A stretch of DNA of 64,000 nucleotides from NCBI GenBank assembly GCA_947172415.1, contig OX359199.1, forward strand, positions 2,444,001 through 2,508,000. The letters are read 5' to 3'. The notes below the pieces were generated by a model that worked only from the letters and a program-made list of their open reading frames with translations, was not told where the DNA came from and searched no databases. A program made the translations under genes and the position numbers. The DNA is from Chondrosia reniformis. Its lineage: Eukaryota; Porifera; Demospongiae; Chondrillida; Chondrillidae. The stretch's first letter is position 1; every line of letters begins with the position of its first letter. Shown here piece after piece: positions 1,427 to 59,189 of this stretch.

Positions 1427-4400
1427 TTACAAATTATCTAGAAGTGGTTGAATGTTCATTCCAAGACTTGCAGCTTTTCCATTATCAAATCCCCTGTGCA
1501 CTCCAATAATGACACAATGTCCTTTTCTAGCTACACTTCTACTTTCCCCATCTATGGTTACAGTAGTGAGGTTGGGTCCTGTATTAGCCAGTACCACAGG
1601 AGACCCCGAAGACCAACTGCAGGTGTCAATGTAGTAGGTAAGTTCATCTGTTAAGAAGTGTACAAAAAGAGGACATATTTATGACTGTAACAGTAAACAA
1701 AGACATATATATGACAGTGAACGTATGCAAAAGAAGTTAAAATCAAATGACCAAATGTACGAATGTACATCTCTTCCTCTAGTTACGTTCAAGGCTTTGT
1801 TTCTGAAAAAATTGAGGCCACACAGTATAGACCAACTTTTTGGTGCAAAGATTTCTTTATAAAATCTATATCACTATGAAGATGCTAAAACATGAAAACT
1901 CTCAAGCATAAATAGAACGTTTCCATAGTTTGTCAGTCACAAAAAGAGCAACCCCTATGTTTAGACGATATGGACTATGCCAAATTAATCTTGAGATGGT
2001 TCATCTTTAGTCGTTTGAACATCTAAAGAAGCTGTGTGGTTTTCAAGAGGTCAGACATTCATATTTCAGGCTGATAGGAGTATATTTTACGGTACCTACA
2101 GTATGCTATACAGTGCAGTGACTAAAATTCTTAGGAGTAAAAGCATTTTATGAAAATATAGAAACTTGCTTCCTTCTAAATGCTCCATTATTCCATGACT
2201 AAATTGCAGTTGCTTTGTATGGTCATGTTTATCAGGAAGATTAAATGTAGTCACAATAGATTGTGCAGAAACCTTGATATCCCTGTAAGCCTCTGTATTG
2301 ACGTAGAATGGGATAATCTCCTTTGGTACGGTTTTGCATTCAATAGCTAACAGCTCTGGCTACAGAAAGGTATTGTTATGGTGTAATTTCTAAAGTTAAC
2401 ACTCACAGAGAAAGCAGAAACACATTCATTGTCAGATTGTTAGACAGATAAAACATACGTAAGACAGCATGCTTAAACTGTATTAAGTAGCCATCTATAA
2501 AATAATAATAGAGTCTCTAAGGCCTTTGAGTATATAGATGATCACTATCTGTTATGGGTTAGAGGGGTACTGTAGGTGCTGTATATATGAAATATGTATA
2601 ACAAAAAATACACAGCTTAAAAATATTTCCAAATTTTGATGGAAGTTGGTCAAGTAAGGAGCTAATAACCCATTTGATCCTCCAATTTCCTACATTGAAC
2701 AATGTTTATAACATAATAGATGGTAATGCCTATTGCAAGGCCTTAGGTAGCTACTGTGGTGATAACAGGCCTGAAGCACCCCCAAATTCGGTAAACCATT
2801 TCTTGTTTTCACCCATAACCGTGAAAATACAAGCCGTTTCTTTACAATAGTAAAGAAATCTTTGTATAGTAGAACCTATCTGCCGATAGAGTTAGAACTT
2901 ATTTACAAGGGAATACGGAGATAAAGAAGCAATCAAAGGAAGTTAGACTTTAAGGTAAGCTTACCGTTTAACGGTCATTTTTGATTTCCTGGCGGTGCCA
3001 TTTCAATTCATTGTATATCTCTTTGACTTAGATTAATTTATTATTGCTTGTAATCTCAGTCTCAGTATATGGAGAACATGTGGCATTGACTGTGTTATAG
3101 GTTTCTTTATACAATGGAAACAGGGACCTTGAATATGGTTCTCAGGTAATGAGCAACAATCACATGACGCTGGTCCCTCTAGTAGTTTAACTGAATCTTA
3201 AAGTTCAAAATTGAGTAGCAGTGAGAGCATATGTAGATGTCAATACCAGTTCTAAGAAGTAATGGCTCATTCTTAGTCAGCCAAATTAGCCTATAACTAG
3301 GCTCAATTTTCCCAAATCAGCATTTGGTGGTCAATAGTGTGCATTTTCTGCTAGATGGTGTCAACATTGTCCATGGTTACCTACAGGAAGATGATTCAGT
3401 ACTCTGCTTGTATTATGCTACTTCTGTCCAACAGAAAATGTCTTTACCTGGTTATGCAACAAAACTTTACAGAAACTGGATCCAGCAACTGGCAAAAGAC
3501 ATTACACAAATTCAACATGAGCAATCAACATCCCATAGGTGTGCTGTTGACAGGATTATGAAGAGTTCAAAGTATGTTGGTGAGACGTTGCTTATACCAA
3601 AGAGAAGGCTAGAAATCGAAATGTTTTACTAATAATTTTGTCTACAATATGTTTCTAGCTCGGCAGGGACTACCATTACTTGGTAGTCACACAGGTGATG
3701 GATGTGGCGACAGTAATTTTAACTGTGCAGGGCCGATGAGCCCATTTTGGATGAATGGATCTCAAAATCAGTATCAGCCTAGTCATCCAAAATGGATCAT
3801 GGCATCAACTACGTATCTTGAGAAAACGTACTCATAAGCTTTCTCAACAGCTGTTTTTAATAATGGCTGATGAAACAGTTGACATTTCTAATACTAAGCA
3901 ACATGTATACCGTAATTCAGGAAATATTTGTGTGATAAATTTTTGCGTTGAAATATTTTCTTGGTCTAAACCAACCGCATTCTTGATTTGAAAAACAAAT
4001 GAACGAGCGAACATTTTGTGCGAAAAATGTTCGTGGTTTGGGCCAACCATGAAAATATCTTAACAACAAAAATTACAGTATTGTATTTGGCAAGCATACT
4101 ACAAAGTAATAGACCATGCCATTCAATCTCGATTTGATCAGGATGGACTCCTGACAGGCTGGAAGAGTTCCTGATGCTAACGCCAAATTAAGTGAGTAGA
4201 TAGAAATATTTGTTCCCTTGAAATACCATCAACTGATGATTTTCCTAATCCACTTAAGTTCCACTAGTTGATATCAATCACAATGAAATAATGAATGTTC
4301 ACTTAGGCCAGGAGGTAGTAAGAAGCCTAGATTCTGACTTGAGAGGACAAAAGAGAAAAATTGTACTCTTGTTAGAAGACCCCCAAAACAATGAGTTGCA

Positions 4401-7400
4401 GAACATAAGGTTAGTATTTCTACAAGCAAATACAACCAACATCTAGACCAAGGAATTATCAAATGACAAAGCTTTCTACTGCAAGGAAGTTCTCAGGAAA
4501 ATCATCACATCAATCGATAATGAAGAGATCAGAAACTATAACTAATTGCTTTAAGAGGGAGCAGGAACAGGAGTAGCTTGTGAACAGAGGGAGGGAGCAG
4601 GAGCAGGAGTAGCTTGTGAACAGAGGGAGGGAGCAGGAGCAGGAGTAGCTTGTGAACAGAGGGAGGGAGCAGGAGCAGGAGTAGCTTGTGTACAGAGGGA
4701 GGGAGCAGGAGCAGGAGTAGCTTGTGAACAGAGGGAGGGAGCAGGAGCAGGAGTAGCTTGTGAACAGAGGGAGGGAGCAGGAGCAGGAGTAGCTTGTGAA
4801 CAGAGGGAGGGAGCAGGAGCAGGAGTAGCTTGTGAACAGAGGGAGGGAGCAGGAGCAGGAGTAGCTTGTGAACAGAGGGAGGGAGCAGGAGCAGGAGTAG
4901 CTTGTGAACAGAGGGAGGGAGCAGGAGCAGGAGCAGGAGTAGCTTGTGAACAGAAGGAGGAAGCAGGAGCAGGAGTAGCTTGTGAACAGAGGATTACAGC
5001 CTTACAAAATTATGTACAGTGTAACTTCTCTAACCAGAACCCTATGTAAACCGGAATTCCCTTTGAACTGAATGATTAGTAAAGTCCCGATTTTCTCCAT
5101 ATACAAACGATACAAAAAATATCTTAGTAAACGAAAACCTCTGAATTCCGAAAACCGAACTGTAGTTCTAGTCCCAAAAAAGTGTTAACATCCATAGAAA
5201 GCTCTCACTAAACCGAACGAATTGTGAATATTATGTCTGCAGTTAAACAAATCCCAAAGCAAAGAAGAATTGAATTGTCCTTAGATAACAAAGTGAAGTT
5301 AATTAAACAATCAGAGTCTCTGCCAAAACTAGGTTTAATTGACGAATTTAGCATTGGAAAGTCTACTGTCTTGGATATTCTAAAGTGCAAACAAAACTAT
5401 AAAGATAACTATAAAAGAAATCATGATAAGAAGAAATGTCATCATAGTATACGAAACCTCACTAATCTGAACACACCTCTAAACCGAACCTTTTTGTTGG
5501 TCCCAAGTGTGTTTGGTTTAGTGAGGTTCACTGTATATAGATTCCTATCACTTAGCATATGGAGGAACAGGTTGCCTATTAAGGGATGGCTTTCAGATCA
5601 CCTCAAAATGACCCTAAAGACAGGTTTTCCATCTACCTCAACAGTAAGCCACATATGCATGAAACATGAGTGTGTCTATGTAATTAGCTCAGTACCTCAG
5701 CTATTACTAAGATATCTTCTTTCAGGTCATCTGGATCACCTTTCAGGTATCTTATCAATGGAATGGGGCCTTGAAGACTCATAGTGTATTCCCAATCCAA
5801 CACATAAAAGCTTGCACCCTTTAAAGCTTTCAGGATATCCTTCTTGCTGTTTCCAACAGTGTCCATTCCCTCCTTTTTCAGGATGCAGTGAATGCATGTA
5901 ATACAGTATTCTATTTCATTGACTTCAATAAAGAAACATGTACCAGTAGCTACTCCAAGAGAATTCCCATTAATAATCCTGAGAAAAAAGTAAATCAACT
6001 GTCATTTAAAAGTTCAGAAAAAATCTACAGAAAAAACATACGGTTGGGCCTCAATCCTACAGACAGCTTTAACCATGTTTCGAAGACTAAATTGACGATG
6101 TGCTTTCTTTATTGCTGCTTCACCAGTCTCTAAGCTGAACATCTTTTCTATCCCTAACAAAAGAGAGAAAGCAAAATGTAATGCCATTGCAATAATTCAG
6201 AGTTGACAGTAATTACTACTACGTACATAAAAATAACAAAATTAAAATACATTCAGGACACTGGTGCCATTGAACAGTGATTAGGTTTAAAGAATCTAAT
6301 GTAAAAAGTTTCTAGAAATGTCCTTAAAAATAACCGATGGCGCTTATCGTTCTCGTAAGTAACCACAGAGATAATATATAATACCTCTAAACGCACAGTG
6401 ACCATCAGACGTCATCCCCTGAATATGGAGGCAAGATAGCAGTATGGCTATGCAAGACTACAGACTACATATATGAGACTTGAAATAACATTAAACAGAA
6501 GACACAACAAAGTCGGGATTGAAATGGAACGAAGAAAATTGTATTTTTTGAAACAGAAAATCCTTTGGCTCTAAGTTTCTTATACGTATAACATCATAGC
6601 CCTTATAAAATTTAAACATTCTGTATTGATTGGTGTTTGACTGATAAATTGACAAAAATTATATCTTAAGAGATATTTTAAGGCCTTTATCAAGCCATAA
6701 CTTGTAGTAGGAATGACAAAACAAAATGATTGTTAACTTTATTTCAAAAGGTTTGCTAAAGGTAGTAAATGTATTATTAAATATTAAATAGCATTTCATT
6801 GTTAACATCATTGACATTACTTGTTCGATTTCCATTACTAAAAGAATTCATCTAGACCAAAGTATTCATAGTTAAGGGTGGGCCGGTGGTATTTTGACAA
6901 AGTTAGTTATCTTTGGTATTTACGATATCAGTACAAATTCGTACTAATGACAACAATCTTATTAATGAGACTACTTCCTGAGAGCAAAAGTTAATAAAAC
7001 AGCGACATCACTTCCTATGGTAGCCATATTGTTGATTGCATCAGGCATCGTAAGGCCATCCTTTACAGGCCAGAGGAAACCATTTCAGTATTGAAAAAAA
7101 TATATCCTCCCTTATTCTCAACATACATCAAGCAATTTTAACACAGTGGTATATAAATAAAACGTGAAACAAAATTACTCAACTTATAGATATACATGTG
7201 AAACTTTGCAAAACATACACAAATTTAATTGATTTGTAGGGCAGACGAGCTGTAAGCATACAGTGATATATTCCCTAAGGTATATATATATTCAGGTATG
7301 GTATATATTCAGGTCAGCTTCTTTAACACTATCTACTGTGCAGAAGAAAGGAAAGGAATGTGGTAAATCTGCTTCAAGTCAGATCAATCTGTAGTTTAGT

Positions 7401-10400
7401 TATAGCTTTGCAAGACTTGCTAAACAAGTACAATACATTTGTTACAAAACTGTAAGTACTGTACTTCAACCGAAACTCATGCTATTAAATAATAATGTTT
7501 AGTATAACTAATGCTCGAAAATAAAAATATTATTATAATAATGGAATAAGGGACTTTGCAGCTTTCTGTAACAATGGATTATCTTTACTTATCATATAAA
7601 CCCAGGGCTACATGCAGAACTACACTTTGAGGTAGGTTCTGACTCTCTCAAAAATAATGAAATTGACCAAACAAAGTACATGCACACCTTACTAACCCCA
7701 ACTTTACAACATGCTAATGATGACATACGTATGTTAGAGAACAGTCACAAGGTGCCAGTGTAAATTACAGTCTTCGGAGGCAAAAACTTATGAATTAATC
7801 CTATACCTTTAGGGCCTTCAAGAAACTCTTCAATCTTAGCTCCAACAGCACGGTTCTTGTCATACAAATTATCCTGTTGAAAAATCCTGGCTAGTTTACT
7901 CAGTTTTGTGATGCTAGGCTTAGCAGTGAAGTACCCATATAACAAATCTCCTGGGTTTTGGTTTTTGTGATCAAGCAGTTCTCTCAGTTGGTCATCTGAG
8001 ATCACATGAGCATTGGAAAGTTCTCCAATAACATCATTAAAATTACACTGTCGGAGATCATCCAAAATAGTTCCAAAAAATTCTCTGATTTCCTCTGGGT
8101 CAGCAAGGTCTATGATACGATTATAAGAGAACATACAAGTAAGTAACCTAAAAGATTCATCTACAAAATTAGATAAAGTCCCAACCTTTTACTCTTGTCT
8201 TCTCAATTCTTTTAGAAGTCATAGCTGTACTTCCAATGCTATTAGTATAAGGTTTTAATTCAGTGTCCTCTGTCTCTATAAAATGTCCCTTGTAAAACTT
8301 AGTATATCTTTAATGACCATAACAGTAATCTACACATCTAACAATTGTACTGTGGAATTTACTTGTTTTATGACTTAATCTGATATTTCATCAAAAGTTA
8401 AATTCGGAATTAATGTTTTCAGTCAAAAGCAGTTAATTAAATTAATTAGTAAAGTGAAGTTGAGGTAGAGAGTTGTTCATGGACTTAACCTATCTACGTA
8501 CATATGATAGATGAGACCTACGATGATATTTAGCATAAAACATGATACGTACGTATGTGTGCATAATTCTAAGAACTGCAAACATGCTTATGAAAATTGA
8601 CATTGGCCCAGATGCTTTAACATCCATAAATCAATATAAATGTACTATACTGTACATTTAGTACAATCCAATGGTATTTGTATTTGAAGTTTATTGGGAA
8701 AACGGATGCATAATTAAAATTCTGCTAAATTAGATCTCTTAAAATTCTGAAATTGTGAACATTTGGTTCATATGACCCTACCAGGAGCCATATGAATTAT
8801 TTAATTATTTATTTATTTACATTAAATTACTATAGTATATTACTTGCACTGTATAAAAAGGAGAACGTACACATTTCGGGGTGAACCCTACAAATGAACT
8901 GTAGAAAGCTACATAAGAGAGAGCAGTGAGCAAGTGTGTATCTGTATGTCTTTGTTCTTTTGCAAATGTAATTGTAATTGTCTGCTATATATAGGAGAGA
9001 CACGACATGTTAATGGCTTCGAAGAGACTTATGAAACAAATGATAGGGAATATTGCAGAGACAATCATCAAAAAATGAATTTTCTGTAGACATGTTACAG
9101 AAACTTTCTACTAGTGAAGCACAACATTTTTTAAGTAAGAATATTAATATTAATATCGTTACCATACCAGTATGTATCACATTAATATGCCATTTAAAAA
9201 GTTATTAATGCGTGAGGATACACAGTTGCACACCATTTTCTTTTATGTACTCTTGACTATATTAAACGATGCTCTATATACAATATACCAGCAAAATTAT
9301 CATTGCCCCCCCCCCCTTAAATTTGAAAATTCGCATTATGCCCTCCCCCTGGCCCCATGTTCTGCATGCAGCCCTGATAAGGCTAGCCTCTTTTGAATGG
9401 AGAAAACCATTTCGTGCCCTTTGGGATTCATAGTGGCCTAAACAGCTGTGCATGGCATATATGTACGTAATAGTTACAGCCCAGAGGCAAGGATTATAGC
9501 CAAAATATAATACAAGCCAAGGAGGAGCCAAGGCCAAGTAATTATATTTCAGCAGAAGTGCAAGGCAATGGGCTCGCTATAACTGATTTATACCTATTGC
9601 CACGGCATTCACCTATTCTGGGATTAAATTGGCTAAAAAGGCTAAGGAAATGTGAAATTTACTTTAAGGACTAAAGAAATTGCTGGAAAAACTAAGAAGA
9701 CGAATGCATATGATAAGATTTATTTCACTTCCTATATTAACTTGTTTATGCTATATACCCTATTAATCAGCAGTTAACGTTGTATATGGTAGATAATGCC
9801 CATCATTAACTCATTGCCATGGCAATGGGGTACAAATATCTATAAACAAGAAACTGCAGCCTACTAATGGAGGCTTGCTTCTGGCTCACCAACGATTATT
9901 ATAGCACTTTATTAGTAAATGGCAGTGTTCAGTATGCTTCAGTTAACAAAGTCTACTTTCTTTTTCTATAACTTTGAGGAGTCAACAATTGTCAAGGTAA
10001 TGATAACAAAGTTGCCAAGTAATTGGAGTATGGGAGATGGCATCCCCTTGAGACTCGAATTACCTGTTAACATTTACCAATGTCACACATATACATTACA
10101 TTAAGAACTGGAGTGTGAAAAATGCAGACAATAAATAACTAAATGTAGTACCAAGGAACGCCGATATCTTGTCAGCAAGGAGCCTGTGAACAGGTTGAGT
10201 GTTGTCTTCTCGGAGACAGTGCGACAGAGCAGACAGTTTCTGAGTTGATATGTCTCTACATAGCATCTCGTAAAGCCTCAAATTAGCCTCTCTCCTTCCT
10301 CCACCATATTCAGTGCGCCATATTTCATCGTAATCAATCACATTATGAGCCTTCAGAGATGGGACTAAACGTCTAATGTCACATTCTTTCAAAAATTCCA

Positions 10401-10556
10401 AAAAATCTGATTTTAAAAACTCCTTTATCTGACCTAATGTAGACAATGTAAATATATAGTACATTTTGAAATCTCATCGGTCAATTTAACTCTGCAGCTT
10501 GTGATTTTACGACTGTATACAAATTTTCCTCTCACTAGCTTCAAAGAAAATGTCAT
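1427..10556 (-). CDS. CARD-like/CARD-like/trypsin-like serine peptidase protein
   Basis: Seven exons join in phase: 10556-10463 (tentative start), 10433-10152, 8109-7807, 6153-6042, 5978-5696, 2359-2200 and 1647-1427, for about 484 residues. Exon 2 encodes a CARD-like helical bundle ('IRRLVPSLKAHNVIDYDE'). Exon 3 encodes a second death-fold-like unit ('LRELLDHKNQNPGDLLYG'). The next exons give a trypsin-fold peptidase: 'GVATGTCFFIEV' then 'YCITCIHCI' (catalytic His), 'KEDILVI' (catalytic Asp) and, in the last exon, 'YYIDTCSWSSGSPVV' (catalytic Ser), ending at a TAA. Every junction from exon 2 to the Asp exon is GT-AG with matching phase. The donor at 2200 (GTCATG) is weak, so that junction is the least sure. 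No signal peptide or membrane segment is seen, so it is probably cytosolic. CARD domains recruit partners in innate immunity and cell death; the substrate is unknown. Domain naming is by eye. Confidence 0.72.
3324..4170 (+). pseudogene. hAT-type (ZMYM1-like) transposase remnant
   Basis: Several frames carry pieces in the order seen in ZMYM1-like hAT transposases: 'VGETLLIPKR', then 'FLARQGLPLLG' near 3650, 'GDSNFN' near 3706, 'IMADETVDISNTKQ' near 3863 (start of the catalytic region), and a late 'SRFDQDG' near 4125. Frames shift and stops intervene, so it is dead. It lies in the 3.3-kb intron of the CARD-peptidase gene, on the opposite strand. Confidence 0.6.
4552..4990 (+). repeat. 36-bp minisatellite, about 12 copies
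   Basis: The unit is built of 'gggagcaggagcaggag' followed by 'tagcttgtgaacagag', with a period of 36 bases. Most copies are identical and a few carry single changes (for example gtgtacag for gtgaacag, and aaggagg for gaggagg). Because 36 is a multiple of three, the array stays open in one plus frame (12-residue unit GAGAGVACEQRE) and in all three minus frames. There is no ATG and a TAA lies just before it, so I take it as a non-coding intronic satellite. Confidence 0.9.
5017..5533 (+). mobile_element. Tigger/pogo-like element, internally deleted, with transposase N-terminus
   Basis: Terminal inverted repeats begin CAGTG (5017) and end CACTG (5533), and TA dinucleotides flank both ends. Inside, an ORF from ATG 5233 encodes a CENP-B/Tigger-type N-terminal helix-turn-helix: 'LSLDNKVKLIKQSESLPK' followed by 'FSIGKSTVLDILK'. 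The DDE catalytic domain is absent, so this is a non-autonomous deletion derivative about 517 bp long. It sits in an intron of the minus-strand peptidase gene. Confidence 0.8.
6154..7806 (-). other. Intron of the CARD-peptidase gene, no other gene seen
   Basis: This 1.65-kb interval separates the second CARD-like exon from the linker exon. Joining them gives uninterrupted phase (Lys-Gly-Ile-Glu-Lys). It is AT-rich, with no recognisable ORF or element apart from short tandem 'ggtatatat'-type stretches near 7280-7310. Confidence 0.55.
8110..10151 (-). other. Intron between the two CARD-like exons
   Basis: This 2-kb intron is flanked by GTACTA (donor, 10151) and CATAG (acceptor, 8110) on the minus strand, and splicing it keeps the frame. 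It is AT-rich, with short ORFs but no family resemblance. A poly-C run of nine lies near 9306. Confidence 0.55.
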
Positions 10557-10652: not shown

Positions 10653-12094
10653 ACTGTACTAATAAAATGCGAAACTATCTACTTAAATTACTTCGCTCCT
10701 TCACGGAGTGTGAGTGTGTCCCACGTTGCTGGTAAGGTTGTACTGTTTCGCCGGGGAGTTCAACATACTCATTGGTGGCCATTGTATCTTCTTGGAAACA
10801 GTAATTTTTATATGCATCATACCACATACCACACTATATAAATTATTACGTCCGAGAGAAATGCAATTAGGTGCCAAAGCGTACGTAAAAGCCAACATCT
10901 TTGAAACTACCATTAGACATGGATAAGAATTGAAACAAATGTACATGAGCATGTTGCAAAACTATTTAAGAACATTTCGCTTTTCTGTAAGAGAGGAACA
11001 ATATGTCTTTAGAAAGAAATTACTGAAAATGATCTAAAATGCAAAATGCACACTCACATAAGTATAGAAGATTTATGGTCAAACAATGTTAAAAGAAAAC
11101 GCATATCACATGGGCACGATCATCAGATTCACGCAACAAACTGTTGCCATGGTTACCTAGGTTATGTGATGTTGACTGTGTGACGTTTGAGTAAGTAGGG
11201 AATTGAGTTAATGATCTGAAATATTTATCCATATATACACTATGTAACAAAGAGCTGCAGGTGATCCAGTATAAAAGACTTGGCATGCATAAATTTTATT
11301 TGAACTGAATATATATAATAACACTATAACTGCACTTAAAGTACGTAGCTTATCTATCAGTGCAGTGATCTTACAAAATATGTATTGGACGTAAACACAC
11401 AATTTTAAAATGGATTGCTCACACTTAGAGTTACTTAAAATGGTAAACAGATTGTCTCAATAAAGTACAAGCTCTCTGTCTCAGTTCCATTTTTATTCCT
11501 ATTTTTCATTTGATTGATACGTGCACTCATCCAAAATTGACAGCTTCTCAAATACATACATCTAAATGTAGATATATTAGTAGAAATCACAGGAACTAAA
11601 AAGGATAGCAGTTTATCTATCGTCTTTGTAAGCACTTTCTAAGTACAGTGAAACTTGCCTTGTTCAATCTGGTAACCTATGAAAACTAGTCTATCCAGTT
11701 AAAATTAGTTTATCCAGTTGCATTATAAAATTAGTTATCTGGTTACATTAAATAATAAAGTTTATTATTTTATATAGATATGCTGCATGCATAGAAAATA
11801 GATTAAATGTTCAGTTTTTGTATTCAAATCTTTATGATGTATCTATGTAGGTGTGTCTGGTCGTCCAGGAATTGGAAGGATTGCAAACTATACGACCATA
11901 TAGTTTACAATCCTCCCAATTCCTGGTCTTGTATTTCCTTATATGTAGGCAAGGAGTTCTCAGAGTTGAAAGCTGGCAGGAAGGCACTGCTTTTTCTGAG
12001 ATATACAAGTAGGTGACCTTCTGAAGTTAAGTAAACTGTTAACCAATTGCAAGTTCTATCAGTTATAGTCAGCTTATGATTCTCAATGTTACAG
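10653..12094. other. No gene recognised
   Basis: This is probably the upstream region of the minus-strand peptidase gene and of the plus-strand kinase relic. It holds one strong hairpin (11875-11936) and a lone Tigger-like terminus at 11645 ('cagtgaaacttgcc') for which I did not find a partner. Confidence 0.4.
11875..11936. repeat. Near-perfect 28-bp-arm hairpin
   Basis: 'ccaggaattgg' + 'aaggattgcaaactata' is followed after a 6-base loop by its near-perfect complement ending 'ccaattcctgg'. It may be a small MITE or a transcribed hairpin. No function is assigned. Confidence 0.8.
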
Positions 12095-14974: not shown

Positions 14975-16293
14975 TTATGTGCTTGAGAGTAAAATTTTGC
15001 ATTCTTCCGTGTAAGGTAGATACTGAATACCGAACTCAATTTTTTGATTTGGTTTGATGGTCAGTACAACCGGAAAATTTCCCTTGATTTGCAAGCGTTC
15101 AGATAAGGATAAATGGGTGCCTTTTGAGGTCACATACATCCAGGTTAATTTCAACATACGTGCACTGAAAGAACCATCACATTTAATAAATTGGCAACCT
15201 GCATCAATTATTGACTTCTTGCGTGACCATTCACCTTGGGCACCCTCTTCTGTGTGTTTCAATAGATCATTTAGTATCCGACCTGACTTTGAACTCTGTA
15301 ATTCAAAGTCTAAAGGCGGAAAGGAACTCCTACTGGAAAATGATAGCCTAAAATGTGAAGTCTCACTTTCTTGGCAAAATATTCTAGGCCAGGTCTCTAC
15401 CTTGCCATAGTATTGGATTGACTGTCTGGAACCTGCCCTAAGTGTTACCATCTTTGGATCTAGGAGTTGAAAGTCACACAGTGTACCCTTGTAGTGCCAT
15501 TTAAGTGCTTCACCAAACTTTTTGTTGTCGTAGCTTCCTGTTGGTCCAACTTCACTAATTAAATCCTCAAAAGGTATAACACCATAATAGCAAATTTGTG
15601 AAAAGAGCTCTGAAAGATGTTCACTGTCTGACTCTGGGTGATTTTCCTTCCATTCCAGGAGGGCCTTAAATATATCTATCTCAGGGTCCACAATGTCTTC
15701 GGATTTCACAATCATCTTCATAATCTCAAAAGGTAAAGGAGAGAGACTGATATCCAGAAATCGCTTAGTTATGTAGGAAATATATACAAGCTTTTATAGC
15801 TGGATTGTCTCCTAATTTCAATGGTTCCAACAAGGCCACACTTATACATAGGCTGATCACTTGATCGGGATTACTCCATTCACTTACTGTGCTTGATATA
15901 GCACCTTTTATTATAGTAATCGGCAGCTTGATACAAAAGAACTGCCTCCTCCTCTGTAACTTTAACTAGCTGACCATAAGGATAAAGTATTAATTTCTCA
16001 AAGAGACTTGCTTCAATGTCTTCTCTGATTGGTATTTCCTTCATAGCGTTTTCACCCCAATCCTCTTCAAACATGGTTTGAAAAAACTGAGAATATTGAG
16101 AGGACAGCTCTGTGAGCTGGGATTACAAGGTTGGTCACATGATTGCCATCCTCAGGAGATGTTTTCACAAAGTGAACATCTGCAGATTCAGGTCCATAGT
16201 GCTCTCTGATGTTGCCCATAGATATAGACAGAGAATGTGTAGAACTAGTAAACTTGTCATCTTGAAGTTTAAAGGGATTGCTCTTTGATTCAT
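14975..16293 (-). pseudogene. BTB-BACK gene copy A, frameshifted
   Basis: It is collinear with the intact copy at 28758-30056. The C-terminal 248 codons (15721-14975) are open, starting at 'MKMIVKSEDIVDPE'. Upstream, the BTB part is broken by small indels: a duplicated 'ta' near 15780, lost bases in the 'YYDLSI' region near 15920, and further changes near 16090. The true start would be near 16293. It has extra C-terminal residues (YTEECKILLSST) that copy C lost to a stop. Flanks match copies B and C on both sides ('gaaacaaaactg' downstream, 'aaacattaggtcatag' upstream). Confidence 0.85.
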
Positions 16294-22941: not shown

Positions 22942-24241
22942 GTTTTTTTCCGAGTTGCCATGTTTAAAGTAGATACTGAATACCAAACTCAACTTTTTGA
23001 TTTGGTTTGATGGTCAGTACAACCGGAAAATTTCCCTTGATATGCAAGCGTTCAGATAAGGATAATTGGGTGCCTTCTGGGGTCACATACATCCAGGTTA
23101 ATTTCAACATACGTGCACTGAAAGAACCATCACATTTAATAAATTGGCAACCTACATCAATTATTGACTTCTTGCGTGACCATTCACCTCAGGCACCCTC
23201 TTCTGTGTGTTTCAATAGATCATTTATTGTGCGACCTGACTTCAAACTCTGTAATTCAAAGTCTAAAGGCGGAAAGGAACTCCTACTGGAAAATGATAGC
23301 CTATATAAAATGTGAAGTCTCGCTTTCTTGGCAAAATATTCTAGGCCAGGTCTCTACCTTGCCATAGTATTGGATTGACTGTCTGGAACCTGCCCTAAGT
23401 GTTACCAGCTTTGGATCTAGGAGTTGAAAGTCACGCAGTGTACCCTTGTAGTGCCATTTAAGTGCTTCCCCATGCAAAGCTTTTGTTGTCGTAGCTTCCT
23501 GTTGGCCCAACTTCACTAATTAAATCCTCAAAAGATATAACACCATAGCGAATTTGTGAAAAGAGCTCTGAAAGCTATTCATTGTCTGATTATGGGTGAT
23601 TTTCCTTCCTTCCAGGAGGGCCTTAAATATATCTATCTCAGGGTCCACAATGTCTTCGGATTTCACAATCATCTTCATAATCTCAAAAGGTAGAGGAGAG
23701 AGACTGATATCCAGAAATCGCTTAGTTATGTAGGAAATACAAGCTTTTATAGCTGGATTGTCTCCTAATTTCAATGGTTCCAACAAGGCCACACTTATAC
23801 AAAGGCTGATCACTTGATCGGGATTACTCCATTCACTTACTGTGTTAGATATAGCACCTTTTATTATTGAAAGATCATAGTAATCGGCAGCTTGAAACAA
23901 AAGAACTGCCTCCTCCTCTGTAACTTTAACTGGCTGACCATAAAGATAAAGTATTAATTTCCTGCTTCAATGTCTTCTCTGATTGGTATTTCCTTCATAG
24001 CTCTTTCACGCCAATCCCCTTCAAACATGGTTTGAAAAAACTCTGAGAAAACTGAGAGGACAGCTCTGTGAGCTGGGATTACAAGGTTGGTCACATGACT
24101 GCCATCCTTAGGAGATGATTTCACAAAGTGGACATCTGCAGATTCAGGTCCATAGCGCTCTCTGATGTTGCCCTTAGATATAGACAGAGAATGTGTAGTA
24201 TTAGTAAACAAGGGATTACTCTTTGAGTTACTTTGATTCAT
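22942..24241 (-). pseudogene. BTB-BACK gene copy B, frameshifted
   Basis: Start ATG at 24241 and an open N-terminus ('HVTNLVIPAHRAVLSVFSEF'), then a deletion near 23960 (IEASLFEKL reduced to IEAGN and a stop). A second open part covers 23900-23520, with a lost base in the WKENHPES region near 23605. Insertions near 23475 and 23305 break the C-terminal domain. It matches copy C closely in the remaining sequence. It is non-functional as a full-length protein. Confidence 0.85.
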
Positions 24242-25842: not shown

Positions 25843-28800
25843 ATGGACTCCGTTTCGCGCTCGTTTCAAAATCCTTTTGGTAGCCTTCAAACTCAAGATG
25901 AAGGAGATTTGATAACTCCAGAAGGAGCCCTCACACAGGTTAGTTCTTGTAGGTGTAATAATATTAACCTTTGATCGAATTGGCTGTCTGTTAAATGCGT
26001 AGGAGTTTAGAGAGAAATTGAAGGAAAATTTGAAGTTGGGTCTAAAGTCGATAGAAGGCGCATTATCTAGCAGTCAATTATATTCAGATTATTCCGTGTA
26101 CACTGGAACAACTGGTGAGAGAAGTACAATCGTTTCGTAAAACTAAGCGAGTAGCTGGTAGGCATAAAATGGACGCTGCAGCAAGCTAGCTGTAGGTTTC
26201 AAATTAATTCTCCCTCTTGCTCTAATGTAGGTATAGCTTTATTGTATCTTCATATTGCTCTTTCACTGGACAAGGAGGATGACCCAGATTTTAAGAAGGA
26301 ACTGTACCTTCAGAAAGCAGCAGATCTCATTTCCCGTACCCTTGCACAGTTGCCAAAGGGACCAGTTACCTTCCTCTGTGGGTCCCCGGGCCCCCTTGCA
26401 GTTGGAGCAATCGTATTCAACCTTCTTGGTAGGTCCAATGATGCGTCACACTGCGTATCATCACTTGTCAACATTGCTTCGGACGTGATCAAGGATGCTA
26501 AACTGCCAAATGAGTTGCTCTATGGCCGAGCAGGCTACCTCTATGCCCTACTATTTGTCAACAACTACATGCCTGGCACAATCAAAGAAACTCTAATAGA
26601 AGAGGTACATGTATGTACGTACGTATATAATGTATATAGGTAGGGTAATGACTTACTGGTTACTAAAGACATAGGGTTTGCACAGGTTTACTTATGTAAC
26701 AGATTAATGAGTTTATATAGGACCTGTGACAAATATAAAAGACCCTTTTTCTACTTTTTCTACATACTATGTCAATTACAGAGTAAAAGGCCTTTAGGGA
26801 AATTAAACCTGTATAGTGAGAGCTTTGGATGAGAATACAAGAGTTTTCCTTCTACTTCTACTCTACCCATATATGTACATATCAGAATATTGATTGCTAT
26901 GAATCATAGATTTGAATTATCAGTGTTGAAAACATTACTGCATCCATTTTATCTCGTGTGTAGATTGCTAAATGCATCCTTGATGCTGGTAAGGCTGGCA
27001 GAGATCCTTCGATTCCTTCTCCTCTTATGTACGAGTGGCATGGTAAACAGTACCTTGGTGCAGCACATGGAATATGTGGAATCCTCACTCTACTCCTTCA
27101 GGTTATCTCAAACATTATGCTTTGCATATATTGTATGTATATTGGAGTAAGAAATCAAATTCTGCCACCCTTGTGCCTAAAATATAGGAGCCTAGACTCA
27201 CTATTAAATTACAGCCTGTGTGTTTTATATCCATGCGTCTGCTATAGATGTAGTGGGAGCTGACAGTTTCTCTGCCTCTTAGATCCCGAGCAGCCCTGTC
27301 AAGGATGAGGCTGTGAAGATGGTTCAGCAGTGTCTTCCATATTTGCTGAGCATCCAGTATCCTTCAGGGAATTTCCCTTCCTCAGTTGGCAGTGCTACTG
27401 ATAGATTAGTGCATTGGTGTCATGGATCTCCCGGATTTGTACATCTGTTAGCTCATTCCTACAATGTAAGTTGTATTTTATTGTTTTGTATTTATCCTGG
27501 GTAGTCCCATTAGCCATAAGTATGGGAGCCCAGTATTACACAGAAAATAACATGAGAAACACATACACACAGAAAAAAAGAAAAAACTAATAGTTCTAAC
27601 TGCGTACATCAGGAGTTACTGCAATAGCGTAGTTGTCATGTCAAGTAAAGTAATTAATGAGCAATACCGTATTTGATCGAATGGATGCCATACCCCGTTA
27701 GTAGCCACCCTCAAATTGACGTTGCACTTGACAAGGAGCAAAGCAAAATAGTAGCTGCATTTAATGACACTCGTAATAAACGTCAGGGTTGCCTGTTGTA
27801 TAACAGTGCAGTAACAGCAAGTGCGTGGTGTAAACTGAGTGCGAACGATTGGAGATGGATGCTGTACAGAAGAAAAGAACATTCAATGCATTATTTAAGC
27901 TCGCCATTTTCATCGCACTATGGTATAATAACATTAACGCATGCGGACAATAACACGTACTTTGCGTTGGCCACACCAGTGTTAATAGTAGCCACCCTCG
28001 AATAATTGCCGTATCCTTGAACCAGACCTGAAAATAATAGCTGTGGCATCTATTCGAGCAAATGCAGTATTCCAGTAAGTGATTTTAAAGTAGTTTGAAA
28101 TCACTTAGTTTAGAGGTAGTCAATATATCAAAATAATAATTCTTAAATAAATAATAGGATTTTTGGCTCACTAATTCTGCATATATCATTTTTGAAAATT
28201 AATAGAAGCTTGTGTATGTAGTAGAGTTGATAGGTTGTGTAATTGTGTAATGACCAATCCCTTTCAAAAAGCTGGGTTACTTGTTAACCAATGCTTTGTG
28301 AGAAGTGGTATTCTCCGAAAGGCCTTTTAGCATAGTCAGGGTTTCTTTCAGGGGACTAAAATAGATTTTTTTTCTGGAGAGCATACACCCAAAACCCATA
28401 TTCTATGGTTAATACCCCCTTGCTAAATACTCTGAAAGAACACTGATAGTGGTATCTTAGTTGTGAGTACATAGTCTACTTTTCTGAGACCTTTTTTGGT
28501 AATAAAAGCTTGTCAAGTTATGTGTGTTATCGATAGCTCCTACCTTTCCTTACAATATTTGTTGATCTAATTTGGTTGTATATGAGTAAATCAATAACTG
28601 AATCAAAGTCACAATGTTATGTACATATAGCCTAATTAAAGAAAAAAAAGAAACAAAACTGTTATTCTGTTAATTATATATTTATTTTAGTTGTATGTAT
28701 GTATAGCAAAAAGGTATTATGTGCTTGAGAAAGCTAAGAGCAAAATTTTGTTTTTGTTTAAGGTAGATACTGAATACCAAACTCAATTTTTTGATTTGGT

Positions 28801-31800
28801 TTGATGGTCAGTACAACTGGAAAATTTCCCTTGATTTGCAAGCGCTCAGATAAGGATAATTGGGTGCCTTCTGAGGTCACATACATCCAGGTTAATTTCA
28901 ACATACGTGCACTGAAAGAACCATCACATCCAATAAATTGGCAACCTACATCAATTATTGACTTCTTACGTGACCATTCACCTCGGGCACCCTCTTCTGT
29001 GTGTTTCAATAGATCATTTATTGTGCGACCTGACTTCAAACTCTGTAATTCAAAGTCTAAAGGCGGAAAGGAACTCCTACTGGAAAATGATAGCCTAAAA
29101 TGTGAAGTCTCACTTTCTTGGCAAAATATTCTAGGCCAGGTCTCTACCTTGCCATAGTATTGGATTGACTGTCTGGAACCTGCCCTAAGTGTTACCAGCT
29201 TTGGATCTAGGAGTTGAAAGTCACGCAGTGTACCCTTGTAGTGCCATTTAAGTGCTTCCCCAAAGCTTTTGTTGTCGTAGCTTCCTGTTGGCCCAACTTT
29301 ACTAATTAAATCCTCAAAAGGTATAACACCATAGCGAATTTGTGAAAAGAGCTCTGAAAGCTGTTCACTGTCTGACTCTGGGTGATTTTCCTTCCATTCC
29401 AGGAGGGCCTTAAATATATCTATCTCAGGGTCCACAATGTCTTCGGATTTCACAATCATCTTCATAATCTCAAAAGGTAGAGGAGAGAGACTGATATCCA
29501 GAAATCGCTTAGTTATGTAGGAAATACAAGCTTTTATAGCTGGATTGTCTCCTAATTTCAATGGTTCCAACAAGGCCACACTTATACAAAGGCTGATCAC
29601 TTGATCGGGATTACTCCATTCACTTACTGTGTTTGATATAGCACCTTTTATTATTGAAAGATCATAGTAATCGGCAGCTTGAAACAAAAGCACTGCCTCC
29701 TCCTCTGTAACTTTAACTGGCTGACCATAAAGATAAAGTATTAATTTCTCAAAGAGACTTGCTTCAATGTCTTCTCTGATTGGTATTTCCTTCATAGCTC
29801 TTTCACGCCAATCCCCTTCAAACATGGTTTGAAAAAACTCTGAGAATACTGAGAGGACAGCTCTGTGAGCTGGGATTACAAGGTTTGTCACATGACTGCC
29901 ATCCTCAGGAGATGTTTTCACAAAGTGAACATCTGCAGATTCAGGTCCATAGCGCTCTCTGATGTTGCCCATAGATATAGACAGAGAATGTGTAGTACTA
30001 GTAAACTTGTCATCTTGAAGTTGAAAGGGATTACTCTTTGAGTTACTTTGATTCATTGTCTGCTTAAATAATAAAATGCTCTGCAGAGTATATTTTCATG
30101 ATAAACATTAGGTCATAGCTATTTATAGTAACACCTATATTTAGGAATGATGTAATCGCTGATGTCATGCTAGGTCTACAATTATGCAAATAACCTAAAT
30201 AAAAGCTTTGCCAGAATTCATAAGCCTCTATAGGTTCTTTTTATATATGTTATATGTTGATTTATGGATATGGTTTCAATTTTCATAATTTTACATTGTA
30301 GTTTGCTATATTTATGTTTCCAATGCTGATATACTCTGTTGTTATAGTGATTATCCAATGGATAGGATTTTAATATTTTAATCTGTGTATGCTAAGCACT
30401 ATTAATAAGTAACTGTAGTGACAGTATTACATTTGGTAGCCATTTAAACACTAATGAATGGTGGAGACTTGCTCTTATATATATAGCAACTTTAAAATAA
30501 ACCTATTGATTTATGGAAAGAAAGCTCCCTTATTTAGACGTATTAAATCATGAAACAAATTTGTCTCATGTTTACTCTTTCACCATAGATTATCTATACT
30601 ACGTAAAGTTGTATAGGTACTGTATGACGCTAAATTTTCGAGGAGCACTATTTTTGTGTTTTTGTGTTGTTGTATTCACAATTATTCTATCATTCACTTT
30701 ACACACTTGTCAACACATAGGTAATAGGAAATGAAAACTACCTGAAAGTTGCAAGAAAAGCCTGTAATAATGTCTGGGAACGGGGCCTCCTTCTTAAAGG
30801 ATACAGTATTTGTCACGGGGCTTCAGGAAATGGTTATGCATTTCTGCAAATGTACAAGACAACTAAAGAAAGGAAGTATTTGAACTGTGCCTGCAAGGTA
30901 GCTGACAATATATATTATTAGTGTGTACATGACTGTATGAAGCTATAGTATATATGTATAGACAAGTACCTTTTCTTATTGTAATGTAGAACCCAAGCAA
31001 CTACCATATTACATTACATAATACAAAAGTCATTAATTTTATTTATAGAATGTATAATCTTAGACAATCCCTTTTATTCCCATCATAATTTATTGTAAAC
31101 ACCCTCACCATTCTTTTTGTGACTAATAAGCCAAACCTGGCTGGTCAGCTTGTATACTGATAGTCACTTTAATAATAATAATAATAATAATATTAGCTTA
31201 ATCAGATGCCGGCTACTATATATTTTATTGCAGAATTTGTACGGCTTCTATTTGAGAGCGGCTACTATTCGAGGTCTTTAAGATGCATGTTGATTTTTTA
31301 AACGACTAAACTTAGAACCCAAGCCAGACTGGTGTAACCTTCCCTTTTTTCTGGATGCCTAAAATCCCTATAGCCATACATTGATAGCTTCTTTACACAA
31401 AACGTACTACCAAGCATCTTTCAATTCAACTCTTTTAGGCAATACTGCTAAGGAACATAAAAAGTAGATAGTATGCTTAAGGCCTGTCCTGTGTAACCTC
31501 ACAGTGTGTGTTACCTCTCTTCCAAAGTAATGTTACTACTAATCTAAGGGTGAACCTATGTATGTACAAGTTCCTGTACAAGTCTGATTATTTCACATTC
31601 ATTTTTATACCAGATAATTTGATTTGACCTATACATTCCTGTAACCATAGTTTTAGCCTATGATTTAGTATAAATATATGGAAGTAAAGAAGATACGAAA
31701 GTGCTATTCTATTTTAAATTGTCCAGAAATGTTTTCATATTGAAACTTTCATGAAGACCAGATGACACTTAATGACTACTTTTAACCCTATATATGGAGG

Positions 31801-39967: not shown

Positions 39968-40122
39968 CTACATGTTTCTGTACTTTTTGTGGATATGTAT
40001 GTTATTAATTTTGTGTAGTACTATTTAATTATTTGTAATTCAAGAAGAAATGGTTAATTTCCATTATAATGTAAAATTGATGTAGTATACAGCATACACG
40101 TATACATGGCAGCTAAAAAAGA

Positions 40123-40194
40123 AGGGGGCACCGGGGATTGAACCAGGGGCCTCTCGATCTGCAGTCGAATGCTCTACCACTGAGCTATACCCCC
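40123..40194 (-). tRNA. tRNA-Cys (GCA)
   Basis: The minus strand folds as a 72-nt tRNA: acceptor GGGGGTA/TGCCCCC with discriminator T, D arm GCTC-AGTGGTA-GAGC, anticodon loop with GCA in 'CTGCAGA', and T arm around TTCAATC. One T-stem pair is a mismatch (CCTGG/CCCGG). There is no CCA and no intron. A T-run (TTCTTTTTT) follows as the likely Pol III terminator. Confidence 0.93.
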
Positions 40195-40268
40195 TGCCTT
40201 GGAAAAGATTAAAAGTAAGCTCCTTATGTACCAAAGTGACCACGGTTTGCCAACTTTTCTTGCACATC

Positions 40269-40775
40269 ATGGAAATGGACTCCTTTCTGAAGAGATTGGA
40301 ACAATTAGAAAGACAGGTTTACGGAATAGAAAAGTCTACTCTTGAACAACCTTCCTTTCGAGAGAGCCTACAAGAAATTGATTCAATATTAAAGAGTTTG
40401 GGAATAGTAGAAAATTCGAATGTAATGATGGCGTGGAAGAATGTAGAAGACATACAACGACACATTTCGGAGGAGAAGGAGAATGACGAAGTTATGGAGT
40501 CTGTAAAGTTAGAATTCCTTCTGGCTAAAGAAAGTTTCATTAGAGAACAAGCGGAGAACCTTGAGCGTCTCTCTAAAGTGGCCAAGTTTTCTGAAGTGAA
40601 GCTGAGTGGATTAGATAAAAGCGAACAGAGGATGCCTCCCATAGTGCATGCTCACGTCAATCAACAGGCCTCGCTCCAGGAAACGAGTAATGGCGTCAAA
40701 GATCTTCTCACAGATTACAACAAAGTTATGGGTTTGGTTTCAAAACAGTTTATGAATTTAACTGAAGTTCCCTAA
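40269..40775 (+). CDS. DCTN3: Dynactin subunit 3 (p22/p24) homologue
   Basis: A single uninterrupted ORF of 168 residues from ATG 40269 to TAA 40775. It is mostly helical and charged: 'FLKRLEQLERQVYG' at the N-terminus matches the family's opening heptads, and the C-terminus has 'LTDYNKVMGLVSKQFMNL'. DCTN3 is a small coiled-coil subunit of the dynactin shoulder, linking the p150Glued arm to the Arp1 filament for dynein transport. Length is close to the usual ~180 residues. It could be intronless or a retrocopy. It lies 75 bases from, and divergent to, tRNA-Cys. Confidence 0.75.
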   Translation: MEMDSFLKRLEQLERQVYGIEKSTLEQPSFRESLQEIDSILKSLGIVENSNVMMAWKNVEDIQRHISEEKENDEVMESVKLEFLLAKESFIREQAENLERLSKVAKFSEVKLSGLDKSEQRMPPIVHAHVNQQASLQETSNGVKDLLTDYNKVMGLVSKQFMNLTEVP

Positions 40776-43787: not shown

Positions 43788-45120
43788 TTAAACATTGTGT
43801 GAAGTATCTGTAGAAGTCACATGATCAGGTTTTTGTCGGATGGAAGAAGTGGCAAAGTTTCTTGCATGTTGAAGTCTTGCTCTGCTGTTGCTGCAACTTT
43901 GTGGCCTCACAGAATCATGTTTATCATCCAGGTCATCAAGAACATGGAATAACTCTGTGAATCTATAGCACAGAATACAATTATAGACAATTATAGATAA
44001 CAAACTGAGAAATGCATGGAAAAAGCCATACTTGCCACCCAGTTCAGATTGAGCTGAAACCAAGACATTGTGAGACTTGTCAAAATCACACTCCATCCTT
44101 TTGACATTGATATATGGTTGGTTGGGCGTGGCTGGTTGCTGCCCTACCCTTTTATCACACTGGTCCACGATCTGAACTCCTGCAAGTTGAGTTCTAATCT
44201 CTACAGATGCTTGTATTGGATTGCCTATCATGATAAATTCCTGAAGTTTTGGTAACTGTCTAAGAGTATGTGATACTTCTTCCAGTGACGATAGCAGGTT
44301 TCCACTCACATCCAAAACTGTCAAGTTTGGGAACCTGAGTACTATACCATTTAAATCTTTTAATTTGTTATTGCTCAAATGTAATTGTTGAAGTGTCTTT
44401 AAAGTGGAAAATTTTGGAAGTGATTCCAAATTTAAACTTTCCAATTTTAGAACCTAACCAAAAGAACAATTACTGACAGTGACAATGAAACAACACTTGA
44501 TACATGAACCAGTAACAATCTAAACACACCATTTTCCTGTAAACATGGGTCATGCATGCTAACAAGGTGCTACAATATTGAGCTCTGCACACTCTACCTG
44601 TAAATGTGGCATTCCCTTAAGAGTATCAAAGGTCCTAATGGGGTTAATTGAAAAGTCTTGCTCTTCCAACTGTAGAAAAACAAACACACATAAAATGTAT
44701 AAAAGGTCAACAAACCTAATGAGTGATACTTTTAACAAATGCTAGAAGTTTTGTGTATTGTGTACTCCTTGAGAATATTCCTTTAGGAATCATGCATTAT
44801 CTCAAAACTAACCTTTTGACATTTCTGTATATCTGATGGAGGTGTGGTCAGTTTGTTTCCTGCTAAATTCAAATGTACCAGGGAAGGGAGGTTATAACCA
44901 CACTGAAACACATGACCCTTACATGATTAAACTGAATACCCTGCGTGTCTGCGAGCTTATTGCAGGAAGCATCTAAAACTCTCAGCTTTTTATATTTTTC
45001 TAGTCCCTTAATTTCAGTCAACCCTCTTCTACTCAATGTCATTTCGTATACAGTCAGAGGTGTGTCGCTTATGCTAGCCTGCGGCTGCAGTTTGGGGTCT
45101 TGCATTATTTTGGTGGCCAT
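43788..45120 (-). CDS. Leucine-rich repeat protein (SDS22-like repeats)
   Basis: Exons 45120-44923, 44902-44813, 44669-44598, 44453-44032 and 43962-43788 (TAA). Repeats include 'LRVLDASCNKL', 'LVHLNLAGNKL', 'LQQLHLSNNKLKDLNG' and 'LTVLDVSGNLLSSLEEV', then an LRR cap-like 'LQEFIMIGNPI'. The C-terminus is polar ('ELFHVLDDLDDKHDS'). About 318 residues; no signal peptide or membrane span, so cytosolic. Short SDS22-type LRR proteins often work in phosphatase regulation or cilia, but I cannot name the orthologue. The first intron would be only 20 nt (44922-44903), which is exceptional. The repeat across it is 28 residues rather than the usual 22-24, so an alternative non-canonical junction is possible. 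Confidence 0.75.
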
Positions 45121-58561: not shown

Positions 58562-59185
58562 TTAATTATGCATACCAATTAACAATGTTATAGCAAAATA
58601 AAACAGGAATATTGGATATATCGCTAGAAACTTCCTGCCTTCAGGTAAATAACTCTTTAAGAAGCCAAGTGCAGCCCATATAGACCAAGACATAGCCACT
58701 CCACAGAGAACAAACTTGACAATTACTAATTTAAAAGGATATTTCTCCATGAAAGAAGAAAGTATCTTTAAGATTAGTAAGGAAATGGTCAAAGGAGTAA
58801 GACTGTATCCAAGGGTACAGACGCACTGAAAGAAAGAAACTTTTCCTTTCAGCAGCTGTGTGTTGATTGTTACGATAATGGCACCAGTCCATAAAAGTAT
58901 AAAAGCCTGAACAAATTTAATTCCCCCACCGACTGATCCATCACTGCTGCCATGCTGGAGTAAAAATGATATAATCAAACACAGAACAAGAGGTCCCCAA
59001 AGGTCCCAGTCGTGAAGGAGAGCCTCACTTCTTCCCGGGAAACTGGGTAAAACTACGTTAAACAGTTTCTTAAGTACTGCCTTGACATCCCTCTTCAGTG
59101 TTTTAGAAATGGGTTCGTCTAGGGTATTTTCTTCTTCTGGTGAAACTTCAATTGCGATGTTACCTTCGACATTGTTACCATCCAT
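58562..59185 (-). CDS. YIPF6: Yip1 domain family member 6
   Basis: A single-exon ORF of 207 residues, ATG 59185 to TAA 58562. The N-terminal 60 residues are polar and acidic and include the family's 'TLDEPISKTLKRD' and 'DWDLWGPLVLCLIISFLL'. Five hydrophobic segments follow, with 'TLGYSLTPLTISLLILKIL' and 'FLAIYPIFLFYFAITLLIGM' at the C-terminus. YIPF6 is a Golgi/ER multi-span protein of the Yip1 family, linked to Rab and vesicle traffic. The length is slightly under the vertebrate protein (~236). The frame is intact and a functional gene is likely. No introns, which may be ancestral or reflect a retrocopy. Confidence 0.92.
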   Translation of the reverse strand: MDGNNVEGNIAIEVSPEEENTLDEPISKTLKRDVKAVLKKLFNVVLPSFPGRSEALLHDWDLWGPLVLCLIISFLLQHGSSDGSVGGGIKFVQAFILLWTGAIIVTINTQLLKGKVSFFQCVCTLGYSLTPLTISLLILKILSSFMEKYPFKLVIVKFVLCGVAMSWSIWAALGFLKSYLPEGRKFLAIYPIFLFYFAITLLIGMHN

Positions 59186-59189
59186 TCTA

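What the first reader, a model, noticed from the sequence alone, without database searches (positions are those of the whole stretch)
1427..10556. CARD-CARD-trypsin fusion gene: a possible animal counterpart of bacterial CARD/protease defence
Phase-matched exons on the minus strand join two CARD/death-fold-like domains to a trypsin-fold peptidase with His (YCITCIHCI), Asp (KEDILVI) and Ser (CSWSSGSPVV) motifs. The exons are seen directly. From established work, CARD-like domains and trypsin-like proteases occur together in bacterial gasdermin anti-phage loci, while in animals CARD usually recruits caspases. A direct CARD-trypsin fusion would be a caspase-free death or immune protease. The functional link is inference; no gasdermin is seen in the window.
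Basis: partly seen in the sequence, partly recalled or inferred. Interest (0 to 1): 0.9.

Follow-up and report, generated by a model that had tools for sequence, protein, structure and literature searches.

The report
Sponge CARD-CARD-trypsin protease gene family
A sponge carries a small gene family that joins two death-signalling adaptor domains (CARDs), which in other animals often recruit caspases, directly to a trypsin-like protease, a layout described in some bacterial anti-virus systems.

Summary

Corrections: the last intron uses a GC donor. The residue expected to be the oxyanion-hole glycine is Trp in this copy alone, so it may be impaired.

The bacterial parallel is one of architecture. 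Searches of prokaryotic and viral collections found no relative, and no gasdermin was matched. More distant CARDs of the superfamily precede 31 of 101 listed NACHT units, but the CARD groups of this gene contain no NACHT-linked member. I favour a CARD-recruited, caspase-free protease. Its function and partner are inferred.

The parts
10152..10433 (-). exon A, CARD 1 (phase 1-1)
7807..8109 (-). exon B, CARD 2 (phase 1-1)
6042..6153 (-). exon C, linker and probably the first strand of the peptidase domain (phase 1-2)
   Evidence: AG/GT ends; phase-2 donor shared with P3 and P1
   Evidence: H invariant in 7 of 7, D in 4 of 7 aligned copies; phase-0 donor shared with P3, P4, P5
2170..2359 (-). exon E, peptidase with the acid of PELLAIEC (Glu codon 2356-2354); ends at a GC donor
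   Evidence: acid E/D in 7 of 7; GCAAGT in register with GTAAGT of P5
1427..1647 (-). exon F, peptidase with the Ser motif (Ser codon 1609-1607; Trp codon 1615-1613 where other copies have Gly) and stop
   Evidence: SSGSP invariant in 7 of 7; W only in the window copy
10692..10782 (-). possible start exon (ATG frame with a phase-1 GT), unverified
   Evidence: read by eye; outside its own locus no match better than E 0.33 in the loci held
4555..4992 (.). 36-bp minisatellite (12 copies) inside the D-E intron

Best explanation
It is one gene of a small family in the sponge Chondrosia reniformis that encodes, most likely, an intracellular protein: two CARDs followed by a trypsin-fold serine peptidase. 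A receptor or scaffold bearing CARDs of the same superfamily (a Roc-COR type protein, or an NLR) oligomerises, recruits the protein by CARD-CARD contact and activates the peptidase by proximity. The peptidase then cuts a substrate that starts a death or immune response, in the place a CARD-caspase holds in other animals. Shown here: exons, phases, CARD-like folds, peptidase family, repetition in paralogues, and CARDs of this superfamily in front of NACHT domains and in a gene with Death and Roc-COR-like frames. Inferred: location, recruitment, partner, protease activity and the death/immune role. The substrate is unknown.
For: Single open frame over six exons. CARD-like folds and CARD sequence family. 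Trypsin_2 in 6 of 7 aligned copies; the profile matches PDB glutamyl endopeptidases at E 0.0016, over the Ser-bearing half. Of 9 peptidase units examined, 5 have a CARD exon within 3.5 kb upstream on the same strand: three with an A-type exon, and the window and P4 with a B-type exon. P1 and P3 repeat CARD-CARD-peptidase. A-type CARDs are followed within 3.5 kb by NACHT in 38 of 150 cases (1000 shifted placements: mean 3.5, maximum 17), on 31 of 101 NACHT units, and by none of 19 caspase exons. CARDs closest on the tree to those of this gene include exons of a gene with Death and Roc-COR-like frames. In bacteria the LypA CARD binds the NLR-like LypB and the peptidase Ser is needed for lysis (PMC13236601 section 9).
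Against: No transcript or protein data. The tree groups holding this gene's CARDs (CARD 2: 11 rows, 100/100; CARD 1: 13 rows, 86/81, unstarred) have no member closer than 23 kb to a listed NACHT unit, which speaks against an NLR as the nearest partner. Trp stands where the oxyanion Gly is expected, and the acid is unsettled. Recent copies have pairwise dN/dS of 0.5-1.05, so constraint may be relaxed. Four of 9 peptidase units have no CARD in the stretch fetched. P1 does not clearly share the D and E splice sites.
Confidence: 0.45

Rival explanations
1. The family is as described, but the window copy is a pseudoprotease that acts as a decoy or regulator: Trp replaces the glycine expected in the oxyanion hole.
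For: W at this place only in the window copy, G in the 6 other aligned copies; unusual GC donor; about 2 Mb from the paralogue cluster; Trypsin_2 not matched by this copy.
Against: His, Ser and the surrounding SSGSP are kept and the frame is open over six exons; pairwise dN/dS 0.43 and 0.31 against P5 and P4. From memory, some trypsins with a non-Gly residue here stay active.
Confidence: 0.25
2. CARD exons and peptidase exons are two neighbouring genes, and the fusion is a reading error.
For: No RNA evidence; 1.65 kb separates exons B and C; the start exon is missing.
Against: Exon phases fit throughout and the joined frame has no internal stop; the same order in P1 and P3, and CARD 2 close before the peptidase in P4; shared phase-1 donor after CARD 2 in P1 and P4.
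Confidence: 0.05
3. Descent from a bacterial CARD-trypsin defence gene (horizontal transfer).
For: Same CARD-then-trypsin order as LypA; remote PADLOC matches: PDC-S45 in 7 of 7 copies (best 2.5e-6) and LmuA in 5 of 7 (best 2.9e-5). The control DegQ matches PDC-S45 only at 0.017, so that match is not explained by the control.
Against: No relative found by word-filtered protein searches or in GTDB and viral contigs; the LmuA match is not specific, as DegQ reaches 1e-9; the PDC-S45 match seen in detail covers only 18-39 residues round the Ser; exon A resembles animal CARDs.
Confidence: 0.05

Closest known systems
Bacterial CARD-NLR systems (Lysobacter enzymogenes; LypA of Caulobacter crescentus), PMC13236601
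   Same: N-terminal CARD fused to a trypsin-like serine peptidase; NACHT genes exist in the same genome
   Different: LypA has one CARD and a C-terminal ATPase and sits in an operon with its NLR; here two CARDs, no C-terminal ATPase, no NACHT in the window, no gasdermin matched, no sequence relation found
Bacterial bDLD1/bDLD3-trypsin proteins (PMC8195603, passages)
   Different: bacterial; direct sequence comparison not made
Animal CARD-caspases (caspase-9, caspase-1)
   Same: CARD in front of a protease
   Different: the protease is of trypsin type, not a caspase; two CARDs. In this genome 2 of 25 listed Pfam-CARD exons precede a caspase
Sponge death-like/TRADD-N proteins with variable C-termini (Amphimedon, PMC8195603 section 10)
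   Same: 1-3 death-superfamily domains joined to interchangeable C-terminal domains in a lineage-specific expansion
   Different: TRADD-N not sought here; the enzymatic effectors named there are caspase, PNPase and HD, not trypsin
FAM111A protease
   Same: similar G-S-SGSPVF serine motif aligned with a paralogue
   Different: E = 1, not significant; no CARD, as recalled

Membership tests
CARD (PF00619) | Pfam profile match | tested here: inconclusive
   window exons 0 of 2 at E<=1; 11 of 26 aligned family exons match at E<=1, best 8.9e-5
CARD (PF00619) | helical death fold closest to CARDs | tested here: met
Trypsin-like peptidase (PF13365) | profile match | tested here: inconclusive
   6 of 7 aligned copies at E<=10; of three scanned singly one exceeds the curated cut-off; the window copy does not match
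Trypsin-like peptidase (PF13365) | His and Ser of the triad | tested here: met
   7 of 7 by alignment
Trypsin-like peptidase (PF13365) | catalytic acid | tested here: inconclusive
   two candidates: D in 4 of 7, E/D in 7 of 7
Trypsin-like peptidase (PF13365) | oxyanion-hole glycine two residues before the Ser (place recalled) | tested here: not met
   Trp in the window copy, Gly in the 6 others
Bacterial CARD-NLR defence system | CARD fused to trypsin-like peptidase | tested here: met
   gene model and folds; no transcript
Bacterial CARD-NLR defence system | C-terminal ATPase domain on the same protein (LypA type) | tested here: not met
   stop codon directly after the peptidase
Bacterial CARD-NLR defence system | NLR-like partner gene next door | tested here: not met
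   no NACHT match at E<=0.1 in 12 of 12 frames of 125 residues or more at 11000-64000, none listed in the window (101 of 139 candidates scored)
Bacterial CARD-NLR defence system | gasdermin effector (some systems) | tested here: inconclusive
   PF04598 no match at E<=1 in the six-frame genome, 0 candidates; introns limit the search and no animal positive control was run
Bacterial CARD-NLR defence system | sequence relation | tested here: inconclusive
   searches found none; these need shared short words or an exact pattern. A weak PDC-S45 match remains

The most novel reading that the evidence does not exclude
Sponges run a caspase-free, inflammasome-like pathway in which CARD-bearing receptors or scaffolds (Roc-COR type or NLR) recruit CARD-CARD-trypsin proteases: an independent animal reinvention of the bacterial CARD-NLR-trypsin layout that acts without gasdermin.
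Probability: 0.25. Interest if true: 0.85.

Novelty: new variant of a known kind. Interest (0 to 1): 0.62.

Why it matters
CARD signalling in animals is best known for ending in caspases, kinases or adaptors. A CARD joined directly to a trypsin-type peptidase would show that the protease slot of death-fold pathways is exchangeable in animals, as it is in bacteria. It would also give a sponge model in which to ask how cells die or signal infection in a phylum for which one survey found no gasdermin.

Tried and rejected
Exon-by-exon Pfam gave nothing; only family alignments did. FAM111A was considered because of the Ser motif: E = 1, not claimed. Profile comparison of the peptidase with E. coli DegQ/DegS found only the Ser motif, probability 0.2%. 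PADLOC: the LmuA match (5 of 7 copies) is rejected as specific evidence because DegQ matches it better (1e-9); the PDC-S45 match (7 of 7) is not removed by that control (DegQ 0.017) but is short, and I leave it open. PADLOC on the CARDs gave 1 of 26 members for each of two unrelated models. A ZU5-like exon before P5 and Death-like frames before P6 and P7 were seen by eye; Pfam gave no match for P5 and P6 and an unrelated weak one for P7, so they are not claimed. Foldseek alone gave no significant hit for exon B. Silicatein was looked for as a sponge marker: seven of 43 cathepsin-type stretches were fetched and read, all with the Cys motif; identity rests on contig lengths instead. The Nature 2025 paper on CARDs in bacterial gasdermin systems is not held; I know it only through papers that cite it. 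A CARD-trypsin fusion in animals did not appear in the listings, nor in the passages read of PMC12909245, PMC11797021 and PMC12799240; the library is partial, so that is no proof of absence. Rows dropped: one search kept CARD hits covering at least 90% without stops; one search thinned them to 27; alignment A2 holds 26 of these 27. Alignment A1 holds 7 of 9 peptidase units (P7 and P8 came later). A tenth weak match at C9:6644691 (E 0.004) was not examined. Caps: A-type CARD 150 of 295 candidates scored, B-type 150 of 177, NACHT 101 of 139. Conservation, dN/dS and tree rest on paralogues of one genome. On re-checking I found that this gene's CARD groups hold no NACHT-linked member, and lowered the mechanism from 0.5 to 0.45 and the novel case from 0.3 to 0.25.

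Full report
The window. Ten of the 15 contig lengths of the window's assembly were seen. Nine agree to two decimals with the chromosome table of the Chondrosia reniformis assembly odChoReni1.1 (for example C7 8.46, C11 7.63, C13 6.9 Mb); C4 is 8.954 against 8.96 (PMC12181767, passages). Total size (117.38 Mb) and count (14 chromosomes and a mitochondrion) also fit. The window is therefore almost certainly chromosome 11 of this demosponge, at 2,444,001-2,508,000.

The gene. Six minus-strand exons were delimited: A 10433-10152, B 8109-7807, C 6153-6042, D 5978-5696, E 2359-2170, F 1647-1427. The acceptors are AG. Four donors are GT and the last is GC (GCAAGT). The joined frame runs 462 residues to a single stop. 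With the acceptor at 1648, one GT in exon E keeps the frame open, but it would remove ten residues present in the paralogues; the GC donor keeps them, and P5 has GTAAGT at the same place and phase. The 5' coding exon is not identified; an ATG frame at 10782 with a phase-1 GT is a guess without support in the loci held.

Peptidase. The D and E exons have paralogues mostly on the same chromosome, extended examined units: the window; P4 209 kb, P5 231 kb, P7 269 kb, P1 377 kb, P2 382 kb, P3 386 kb and P8 401 kb on C11; and P6 on C13. Seven spliced domains were aligned (A1). Trypsin_2 is matched by 6 of 7, best 6.9e-7, and not by the window copy. The profile matches glutamyl endopeptidases at 0.0016 over the Ser-bearing half. 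His and Ser are invariant in 7 of 7. A second acid, at PELLAIEC, is E in 6 and D in 1. Two residues before the Ser, six copies have Gly and the window has Trp. Whether the window protein cuts is open.

One family. P3 repeats A-B-C-D-E-F and P1 repeats CARD-CARD-peptidase. P4 has CARD 2 before the peptidase with what looks by eye like a degenerate CARD 1 in front, and P2 has one CARD. Splice sites agree in phase with P3 and, where compared, P4 and P5; P1 agrees at the CARD exons and exon C, but its D and E ends were not clear. Five of 9 units have a CARD exon within 3.5 kb upstream. P5, P6, P7 and P8 have none in the 2.4 to 4.7 kb fetched. Pairwise dN/dS of the window peptidase is 0.43 (P5) and 0.31 (P4), and of its CARD 2 against P4 0.44; recent copies give 0.50, 0.61, 0.62, 0.98 and 1.05, and one pair was saturated. 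This fits some constraint in a fast-moving family and does not prove function.

Context in the genome. A-type CARD exons are followed within 3.5 kb on the same strand by a NACHT domain in 38 of 150 cases, against a mean of 3.5 and a maximum of 17 in 1000 shifted placements. They cover 31 of 101 NACHT units, so some carry two, and none precedes one of 19 caspase exons. Two of 25 Pfam-CARD exons precede a caspase. Another stretch, probably one gene, has three CARD exons, a Death domain (1.6e-6) and weak COR-A and Roc matches (0.0048, 0.017). So this sponge joins CARD units to different C-terminal parts, in the manner described for Amphimedon death-like/TRADD-N proteins (PMC8195603, section 10). 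Against a simple NLR link: on a tree of 43 CARD exons, CARD 2 of the trypsin genes falls in a supported group of 11 (100/100) and CARD 1 of the window in a weaker group of 13 (86/81); both include exons of the Roc-COR-like gene, and none of their members lies within 23 kb of a listed NACHT unit. The partner cannot be named from sequence.

Mechanism and comparison. In bacteria, LypA is CARD, trypsin-like peptidase and ATPase; its CARD binds the NLR-like LypB and its catalytic Ser is needed for lysis (PMC13236601, section 9). Bacterial death-like domains fused to trypsin are also reported (PMC8195603, passages). The sponge protein works, in the most likely reading, like these and like CARD-caspases: recruitment by CARD contact, activation by proximity, cleavage of a substrate. 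It is not filed as a member of the bacterial system: no ATPase domain, no NACHT in the window, no gasdermin matched, no sequence relation found apart from short PADLOC matches, of which the LmuA one fails a DegQ control and the PDC-S45 one does not. A metazoan survey lists only NLR and caspase-1 for Porifera (PMC11508797, passages). Convergent assembly from animal parts is the simplest account, not a proven one.

Verdict. The architecture is firm as a gene model (about 0.95). The recruited-protease mechanism is the best guess (0.45). Catalysis by this particular copy is doubtful. Interest is moderate to high, because a direct CARD-trypsin fusion in an animal did not appear in the papers searched and is testable.

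Noticed in passing
L064 (C11:409001-418000), minus strand: Three CARD exons, a Death domain (PF00531, 1.6e-6) and weak COR-A/Roc matches, probably one gene: related CARDs on a different C-terminal part.
   Followed up: partly
C7 about 0.9-2.8 Mb of the genome: Large array of CARD-NACHT units, some with two CARD exons.
   Followed up: partly
L065:5910-6623: Open frame after a CARD 2-type exon that by eye resembles a PD-(D/E)XK nuclease; Pfam gives only a weak TOP6A-Spo11 match.
   Followed up: no
L061:994-1665, L068:1501-1779, L072:56-433: Peptidase paralogues P5, P6, P7 are preceded by a ZU5-like or Death-like frame by eye; Pfam does not confirm.
   Followed up: partly
14975-15793, 23520-23966, 28758-30095: Repeated BTB-BACK genes: BTB 7.7e-15 and BACK 8.6e-8 on the last, BACK 3.3e-5 on the first, a weak BTB match on the second.
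   Followed up: partly
40086-40775, 26155-26643, 58562-59254, 43788-44453: Ordinary neighbours: dynactin p22, LanC-like, Yip1-domain and LRR frames.
   Followed up: partly
4555-4992: 36-bp minisatellite, 12 copies, inside an intron of the gene.
   Followed up: no
C9:6644691-6644828 of the genome: Weak further match to the peptidase Ser region (E 0.004), not examined.
   Followed up: no
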